From contig NC_064657.1 in NCBI RefSeq assembly GCF_001723175.1, positions 372,001 through 436,000 on the forward strand: a DNA stretch of 64,000 nucleotides. Reading direction: 5' to 3'. The position numbers and the translations under genes are program-made. The notes below the pieces were generated by a model. That model was not told the origin of the DNA and ran no database searches. It saw only the letters and a list, made by a program, of their open reading frames with translations. This document shows positions 59,911-62,761 of this stretch, piece by piece (position 1 is the stretch's first letter; each line of letters begins with the position of its first letter). The stretch comes from Penicillium oxalicum (lineage: Eukaryota; Ascomycota; Eurotiomycetes; Eurotiales; Aspergillaceae).

Positions 59911-59996
59911 TCTTCCTTGGTCTAGTGGTCATGATTTCCGCTTGTCATTAACACCGATAAGCGCGGGAGACCGGGGTTCGATTCCCCGAGGGAGAG
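59911..59996 (+). tRNA. tRNA-Asp (anticodon GTC) with a 14-nt intron
   Basis: An 86-nt gene folds as a tRNA. The acceptor TCTTCCT pairs with AGGGAGA, with one G-T pair. The anticodon stem TCCGC pairs with GCGGG, the T arm is CGGGG-TTCGATT-CCCCG, and the discriminator base is G, as expected for Asp. The anticodon GTC is at 59944-59946. A 14-nt intron (59948-59961) sits after position 37, the canonical place for nuclear tRNA introns. Six T residues at 60001-60006 make a Pol III terminator. The D stem (GTCT/TGAT) is weakly paired, so a decayed copy is a minor alternative. Confidence 0.88.
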
Positions 59997-61073: not shown

Positions 61074-62761
61074 CTAAGCTTTCGAGGCGAAGGGAGGGAC
61101 GTGATTGGACATAGAAAACATTTCCGCCTTCGAAAGTTGCAAGCCTTGGTCTTGCTCGTCAAAAGACTTGACGGTGCAATTTCCTCGGCAGCGTTTCTGA
61201 ATCGTATAAGAGATGACGTCCTCATTGCCCCGATCGCAGTCTTTCAAGTATCGTGCACCGCAGTAACTTCCGGTATGTCAGCGTGGACTGCAAATCTGGT
61301 CGTTTCGCAGTTTACACTTACCTCCAATGCGCTAGCCCCATAGCTATGTCGTAGCAGCCTTGAATGAATGCGGCGGAAATATTGGCAGGTACTTCTTTGC
61401 TACTATTTGTCAAGAGAGCCCGAGAGTGACGGAGTCCTTCAACTTCATGACGAAGTAACTCGTAGCTCTCTTGCATCGCAACATTGCAGCTGAGATTGTT
61501 GTTGAGCATCAAGATAGGGATCAGGTTCTCGAATTGGTCGTCCATCTGTTTCGAGTCAGACTGAAAGCTTGTGCAATCATCACGAGAGCTTTCACGTACC
61601 ATTTCCTTGCGGAAGGAGAACATGTCGTTTGATCTGCTCCCATGTCAAAAAATATCCCATGAAGGGCTCCCAGGGGGTTCATCCTCACATGTGTACAAAT
61701 GAAGAGCAGTGTTTCCAAAGTTTGCGCATGACAAGACCGTCACAAACTGACTTCTCCACGTCCATTCCGTAAACGAATCTATTTTCAAGGCCTCAGTTCA
61801 ATTGTCTGGTAGACCAAGGGAGAGCCTCCTACGTACGGAATGGTGGCCACCACGCACAGAGCAGCTGCGGTGGCTTCACGCCTCTCCCAATATTGCTCAA
61901 CGGACGGCAACTTATTGTCTTTGAAAATGATGTCGACATTGTTCAGACTCTGGACGTATCGAAGCATCTCCGTGCAAAGCACTTCACGAGTCGCTGTCAA
62001 GCAGTCAGAATTGGTCTTTGCCGTTAGGGCATGCGTCAAATGTTTTGTAAGGCGAACCTTGGGAACAATTTCCTCGAATATGATCGCCAACTTCATCCCA
62101 GCAATGCAATGCATTTTGAAGCTGGAGATCAAAGGAGGATAGGTCCGGCATTATTCCTTGCCCGAGTAGGGTGAAACGGAAGTAATCCAGGCTCGCATCT
62201 CGGTAGCGCTGGGCCCCAAGCTGGTTATACTTTAAGGATCCGCAGTCGAAGACTAATTCAAATCAGCCATTAGAGTTGATGACGGAAAGCCATAAAATTG
62301 AGGGACATACTGTCGTCAAATACAAAGTACTGCGCTTGGTCAGCTCAGTCTATGATTATCCTCAGATAGTCAAAGAAAGGGAAGCAAAATCATACCCAGG
62401 CAAAGTATTTTGAAGCAGAGCAGAGGATCTCATATGGTCGATGATTAGGGACCCATACTGCAGCAAAACGACCAAAATCGGCCGCACAGAGAGCTCGTGC
62501 TGTATCTTTGTCTACCACCCATCTTTAGGCGGAAAGGTTATTCAGCACGAAAAGGTGCTAGAAACAGGCCAAAAAAGTTGCATTCTCTTACCTTCTGATC
62601 CACGGGTCGAGAGATTCTTCCCGCGCAAGCTTATATTTCTCGTGAAGAGTTGGCTTCCATTCCGGTACCAATTTGTAGATACTTGGGATGATCACTCTCT
62701 GGCCTTCCAAAGAATTTTTAAATTGAGCATCGATGATTGGGGGCGCAGCTTCCGACATCAT
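61074..62761 (-). CDS. Class I terpene synthase (probable sesquiterpene cyclase)
   Basis: Nine exons in transcript order (62761-62592, 62522-62396, 62329-62311, 62252-62058, 61993-61837, 61778-61689, 61633-61600, 61545-61322, 61266-61074) give 402 aa with no internal stop. The class I alpha domain has the Asp-rich DDIFD (104-108, within FVFDDIFD), WDEVGDHI, LPSVEQYWERRE, the NSE triad NDMFSFRKE (N255, S259, E263) and the late WSYCGARY, with the Arg-Tyr pair (344-345) that contacts diphosphate. Three Mg ions held by these motifs ionise a prenyl diphosphate, probably farnesyl diphosphate, to start cyclisation. Exon 3 is 19 nt. Intron 4 has a GTTCGC donor but a good CTGAC branch and CAG acceptor. 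A second ATG three bases on is equally possible. The product cannot be predicted. Confidence 0.9.

What the first reader, a model, noticed from the sequence alone, without database searches (positions are those of the whole stretch)
61074..62761. Intact, apparently solitary terpene synthase split into nine exons
Naive six-frame reading shows only fragments, but splicing restores one 402-aa protein with DDIFD, NSE and the WSY-RY motifs, with all phases closing. No tailoring enzyme, transporter or regulator is visible within about 1.2 kb on the right or in the 1.1 kb on the left. It may be a lone cryptic terpenoid gene or the edge of a cluster outside the window. The product is unknown.
Basis: partly seen in the sequence, partly recalled or inferred. 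Interest (0 to 1): 0.75.

Follow-up and report, generated by a model that had tools for sequence, protein, structure and literature searches.

The report
Intact Penicillium terpene-making enzyme gene
This is an ordinary, intact and already catalogued terpene-making enzyme gene of the mould Penicillium oxalicum; its product is unknown, but nothing about it looks unusual in kind.

Summary

The setting needs two corrections. The next gene found right of the window is a short-chain dehydrogenase, divergent, 1,456 bp away. The two genes have consecutive locus tags in P. diatomitis, but relatives of this dehydrogenase also occur in Penicillia where my searches showed no synthase, so it may be a bystander. 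And 'cryptic' is too strong: PDE_06154 was seen by RNA-seq on starch (PMC9158223). The nearest P450 that the search found on this contig is about 405 kb away (92 of 105 candidates scored), whereas a second family member in this genome lies beside a P450. New member of a known kind; modest interest.

The parts
62592..62761 (-). exon 1, start codon ATG at 62761 (a second ATG follows at 62758, the start used for PDE_06154)
62396..62522 (-). exon 2
62311..62329 (-). exon 3 (19 nt): encodes YFVFDD, the first half of the aspartate-rich motif DDIFD (residues 104-108)
62058..62252 (-). exon 4: rest of DDIFD
61837..61993 (-). exon 5: contains R209, proposed diphosphate-sensor arginine (role recalled), R in 53 of 56 relatives
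61689..61778 (-). exon 6
61600..61633 (-). exon 7 (34 nt): NSE metal-binding motif NDMFSFRKE (residues 255-263)
61546..61599 (-). intron 7 (54 nt): in frame and without stop, so its removal rests on homology
61322..61545 (-). exon 8, ends inside the WSY codon triplet
61074..61266 (-). exon 9: rest of WSY, the RY pair (R344, Y345), low-confidence C-terminal tail and stop codon
62762..64000 (.). window part of the 1,456-bp gap between the divergent start codons of this gene and of the short-chain dehydrogenase that begins 218 bases beyond the window (L002:218)

Best explanation
The gene is an intact, expressed class I terpene synthase of Penicillium oxalicum, most likely a sesquiterpene synthase. 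By established knowledge of the family, DDIFD and NDMFSFRKE bind three Mg2+ ions that hold farnesyl diphosphate; R209 and the R344-Y345 pair hold and sense the diphosphate; its loss gives a carbocation that cyclises in an apolar pocket. As a PF19086-type fungal enzyme it most likely closes the first ring at C1-C10 or C1-C11. Shown here: sequence, splice model, motifs, conservation, predicted fold, orthologue in 114-2. From the literature: transcription of the orthologue. Inferred: substrate, ring closure, activity. It does not lie in a recognisable P450 cluster; the product may be released as a hydrocarbon or alcohol, or be oxidised by the adjacent dehydrogenase or by enzymes encoded elsewhere.
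Against: Identity to any enzyme of solved structure is only about 15-23% in the structural rows, too low to name a product, and a related enzyme could use geranylgeranyl diphosphate: diterpene synthases (VenA; 9m25) share the fold. No assay is known for this enzyme or, as far as these searches show, for a close relative. One protein deposited as an inactive guaia-6,10(14)-diene synthase (9wf7) is also a sequence match, so homology alone does not prove activity. The C-terminal 36 residues are modelled with pLDDT under 50.
Confidence: 0.85

Rival explanations
1. The synthase and the divergent short-chain dehydrogenase form a small two-gene pathway: the synthase makes a terpene alcohol and the dehydrogenase oxidises it to a ketone or aldehyde.
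For: Next gene found on the right, divergent, 1,456 bp between start codons. In P. diatomitis the closest relatives are N7539_008048 (synthase, 69%) and N7539_008049 (dehydrogenase, 69%), consecutive tags. In P. ucsense the listed contig for both relatives has 387,232 bases. TaTC6 and BcBOT2, the nearest structures, are named after alcohol products.
Against: In P. verhagenii (N7466_001062 and N7466_003798) and P. angulare (N7456_001308 and N7456_003076) the listed synthase and dehydrogenase relatives are not neighbours, and dehydrogenase relatives at 54-58% identity occur in P. chrysogenum, P. camemberti, P. digitatum and others for which neither synthase search lists a protein. PDE_06155 and PDE_06153 are not in the table of 36 co-lowered genes that holds PDE_06154 (that the tags are neighbours of this gene is assumed from numbering).
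Confidence: 0.2
2. A pseudogene or a non-catalytic relative.
For: Some relatives are recorded as short or motif-less proteins (for example P0023, P0030), and the C-terminal tail is variable.
Against: Full frame, all catalytic motifs, 101 of 110 conserved columns kept, only three substitutions against PDE_06154, and transcription of the orthologue.
Confidence: 0.04
3. A diterpene or sesterterpene synthase using a longer substrate.
Confidence: 0.12

Closest known systems
PDE_06154 / EPS31199, Penicillium oxalicum 114-2 (listed under UniRef as 'Terpene synthase')
   Same: The same gene in another strain: 99% identical over the whole length.
   Different: Three substitutions (window residues G166, E315, G352); annotated start one codon later. 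Called 'hypothetical protein' in PMC9158223.
Trichobrasilenol synthase TaTC6 (PDB 7w5f to 7w5j)
   Different: About 18% identity in the structural alignment; product and ring closure of our enzyme untested.
Presilphiperfolan-8-beta-ol synthase BcBOT2 (PDB 8h6q, 8h6u)
   Different: 21-23% identity in the structural rows; the botrydial-type cluster around BcBOT2 (recalled) has no counterpart seen here, and no P450 was found near.
Protein named (+)-germacrene D synthase, Aspergillus udagawae (P0091)
   Same: Member of the same protein family by profile search, 45% identity over 88% of the query.
   Different: The name is a deposited label, not a test that I saw; only weak product guidance.

Membership tests
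Fungal class I terpene synthase, PF19086 type | Terpene_syn_C_2 domain over the curated cut-off | tested here: met
   95.4 bits, cut-off 23.7, residues 95-299
Fungal class I terpene synthase, PF19086 type | aspartate-rich motif DDxxD | tested here: met
   DDIFD at residues 104-108; the three D are D in 52, 54 and 52 of 56 relatives
Fungal class I terpene synthase, PF19086 type | NSE triad (N,D)Dxx(S,T)xxxE | tested here: met
   NDMFSFRKE at 255-263; N, D, S in 55 and E in 54 of 56 relatives
Fungal class I terpene synthase, PF19086 type | diphosphate-sensor arginine and C-terminal RY pair (roles recalled) | tested here: met
   R209 (53 of 56), R344 (46 of 56, 9 gaps), Y345 (45 of 56, 9 gaps)
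Fungal class I terpene synthase, PF19086 type | all-helical class I fold | tested here: met
Fungal class I terpene synthase, PF19086 type | cyclises a prenyl diphosphate | not testable with these tools
   needs an enzyme assay
Trichodiene synthase-like sesquiterpene synthases (PF06330) | PF06330 domain | tested here: not met
   Pfam scan at E up to 1e-3 reports only PF19086 and PF03936
Terpenoid gene cluster with P450 | cytochrome P450 gene close by | tested here: not met
   Nearest P450 place found on contig C8 is 839860-840894, about 405 kb away; 92 of 105 candidates were scored, so a weak one could be missed
Terpenoid gene cluster with P450 | Zn2Cys6 regulator close by | tested here: inconclusive
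   Nearest match C8:507285, about 72 kb away; 150 of 201 candidates scored
Terpenoid gene cluster with P450 | some oxidoreductase next to the synthase | tested here: met
   short-chain dehydrogenase at L002:218-1181 (Pfam hit on the L002:295-780 frame, 66.3 bits); role in the pathway untested
NCBIfam terpene synthase equivalogs (bacterial) | score over the curated cut-off of one equivalog | tested here: not met
   PDE_06154: best 34.7 bits for isoafricanol synthase, cut-off 500

The most novel reading that the evidence does not exclude
The synthase and its divergent dehydrogenase are a conserved minimal two-gene terpenoid pathway of P. oxalicum and its near relatives (P. diatomitis, perhaps P. 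ucsense), making an oxidised sesquiterpenoid without any clustered P450 under starch-linked regulation; related synthases in other Eurotiales carry hydrophobic C-terminal tails that could anchor them to membranes, which this lineage lacks.
Probability: 0.1. Interest if true: 0.45.

Novelty: new member of a known kind. Interest (0 to 1): 0.25.

Why it matters
It adds a transcribed, catalytically complete synthase with unknown product in a fungus studied for enzyme production, in a Eurotiales and dermatophyte family for which I found no tested member in the searches made. If assayed it would give a product to a family of some 75 listed proteins, the window's own orthologue included. The kind of enzyme and the fact that the gene exists are already on record.

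Tried and rejected
Exon-wise Pfam scans of six reading frames gave only two sub-threshold PF19086 matches and the own-genome PF19086 search did not ring at this locus at all, because of the introns; PF03936 gave no match. The spliced protein removed the problem.

Pseudogene reading: rejected.

P450 cluster beyond the right edge: I fetched 40 kb right of the window and scanned 10 chosen large frames from about its first 16 kb: dehydrogenase, invertase-type GH32 (two frames), MCRA-type hydratase (two frames) and a JmjC protein; 6 of 10 frames hit. On the left, 10 chosen frames from 46.0-58.7 kb gave G-patch, desaturase, UBX and Rad52 domains; 4 of 10 hit; two further frames at 58.7-59.4 kb gave nothing. 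These are the larger frames, not every frame, and the remaining 24 kb or so of the fetched right flank was not scanned against Pfam. Transporters were not searched genome-wide.

Synteny could be judged only from locus tags and listed contig lengths in protein records, since no other fungal genome is held. The 114-2 copy of the dehydrogenase was not among the 48 hits; I do not know why.

Product prediction from NCBIfam failed: all scores far below cut-off. Literature: PDE_06154 in one paper; six further tags or accessions only in that same paper; searches gave no assay of this family in what I saw (listings only, apart from passages of PMC5942377 and PMC11122449). PMC5942377 says that two Aspergillus kawachii synthases are close to fungal germacrene D synthases; whether they belong to this family was not tested. 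For PMC9158223 I read section 10 only.

Rfam gathering scan of 57-64 kb gave no match, so the tRNA-like call of ARAGORN is unconfirmed.

Full report
What is there. The window is C8:372001-436000 of a 30.77-Mb genome in 17 contigs. On its minus strand, 62761-61074, a nine-exon gene with eight GT-AG introns of 54-69 nt encodes 402 residues. The protein is 99% identical over its whole length to PDE_06154 of Penicillium oxalicum 114-2, so the window is taken to be from P. oxalicum (inference from one protein). The deposited protein starts one codon later and differs at three residues.

Is the model sound? PDE_06154 gives the same splices, and P0002, P0003 and P0005 from other species run gap-free through the eight junctions. 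P0006, P0008, P0010 and P0012 depart at or near one or two junctions; P0012 carries an insert at the place of intron 7, as if that intron had been kept. Intron 7 is the only one of the eight that could be retained without a stop. Two small exons matter: exon 3 (19 nt) carries the DD of DDIFD, exon 7 (34 nt) the NSE motif, which explains why naive frames and the own-genome domain search missed the gene.

What does it make? By fold and motif it is a class I synthase. In PMC11122449 (passages), 123 reported fungal sesquiterpene synthases fall into a PF19086 clade (96) with germacrene (C1-C10) or humulene (C1-C11) cations and a PF06330 clade (27). This protein has the first domain and PF06330 was not reported for it. 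The nearest solved enzymes make trichobrasilenol and presilphiperfolan-8-beta-ol (C1-C11 closure recalled), while one family member is labelled (+)-germacrene D synthase (P0091; C1-C10 closure, PMC5942377). These hints disagree, so no product is named. Diterpene and sesterterpene synthases share the fold, so the substrate is inferred.

Family. The first search lists 36 proteins including PDE_06154; the 35 with a named organism are from Penicillium and Aspergillus and one is unnamed. The profile search lists 72 and adds Microsporum, Trichophyton and Elaphomyces; together 75 distinct ids. I found no assayed member, within an open-licence library only.

Setting. The next gene found to the right lies just outside the window: a short-chain dehydrogenase on the plus strand, start codon at L002:218, 1,456 bp from the synthase start codon. 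Then come a GH32 enzyme, an MCRA-type hydratase and a JmjC protein. To the left are Rad52 and UBX domains and a desaturase further out. No P450 place was found nearer than about 405 kb on this contig and no Zn2Cys6 place nearer than about 72 kb, both with partly scored candidate lists. By contrast the same family has a second member at C3:3233609-3235027 (38-51% identical stretchwise to PDE_06154), closest to an Aspergillus parasiticus protein, with a P450 about 1.3 kb away. So the genome holds one family member beside a P450 and one without.

Is the dehydrogenase a partner? For: consecutive tags N7539_008048 and N7539_008049 in P. diatomitis, and an equal listed contig length in P. ucsense. 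Against: not consecutive in P. verhagenii and P. angulare, and dehydrogenase relatives occur in Penicillia for which neither synthase search lists a protein. The best reading is a conserved neighbour of unproven role.

Expression. PMC9158223 (section 10) lists PDE_06154 among 36 genes lowered at least twofold in four engineered strains of 114-2 against wild type after 21 h on rice starch. The gene is therefore transcribed in wild type under that condition; the paper calls it a hypothetical protein and draws no link to terpenes in that section.

Verdict. Interest 0.25.

Noticed in passing
relatives P0003, P0004, P0006, P0008, P0022, P0024, P0028, P0086, P0089: Nine of the 50 family members whose C-terminal tail could be measured (of 75) have a 19-residue tail stretch with mean hydropathy of 1.6 or more (three above 2.0), a possible tail anchor; P0004, P0005, P0006, P0008 and P0028 share an FSPLIM-like motif there. 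The soluble cores themselves reach up to 2.33, so the score alone proves nothing. P. oxalicum and P. diatomitis lack it (0.08 and 0.33) (one literature search gave nothing on point).
   Followed up: partly
L016:5481-7054 (G000:C3:3233481-3235054): A second member of the same synthase family in this genome, about 1.3 kb from a P450: a candidate terpenoid cluster.
   Followed up: partly
L001 / L019 (G000:C7:1262350-1262499): Another PF19086 match over the family cut-off (26.6 bits) only weakly similar to this family; three large frames nearby gave no Pfam hit.
   Followed up: partly
window 59911-59996: ARAGORN reports a tRNA-like gene with undetermined anticodon, possibly intron-containing; Rfam at gathering threshold does not confirm it.
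   Followed up: partly
window 61546-61599: Intron 7 is a multiple of three and free of stops; retention would add 18 residues right behind the NSE motif, and the P. canescens record P0012 carries an insert at that place.
   Followed up: partly
L002:218-1181: The dehydrogenase of this strain found no near-identical protein: its best hit is 69% (P. diatomitis), although the synthase itself found its 114-2 orthologue. Perhaps a missing or different gene model in 114-2.
   Followed up: no
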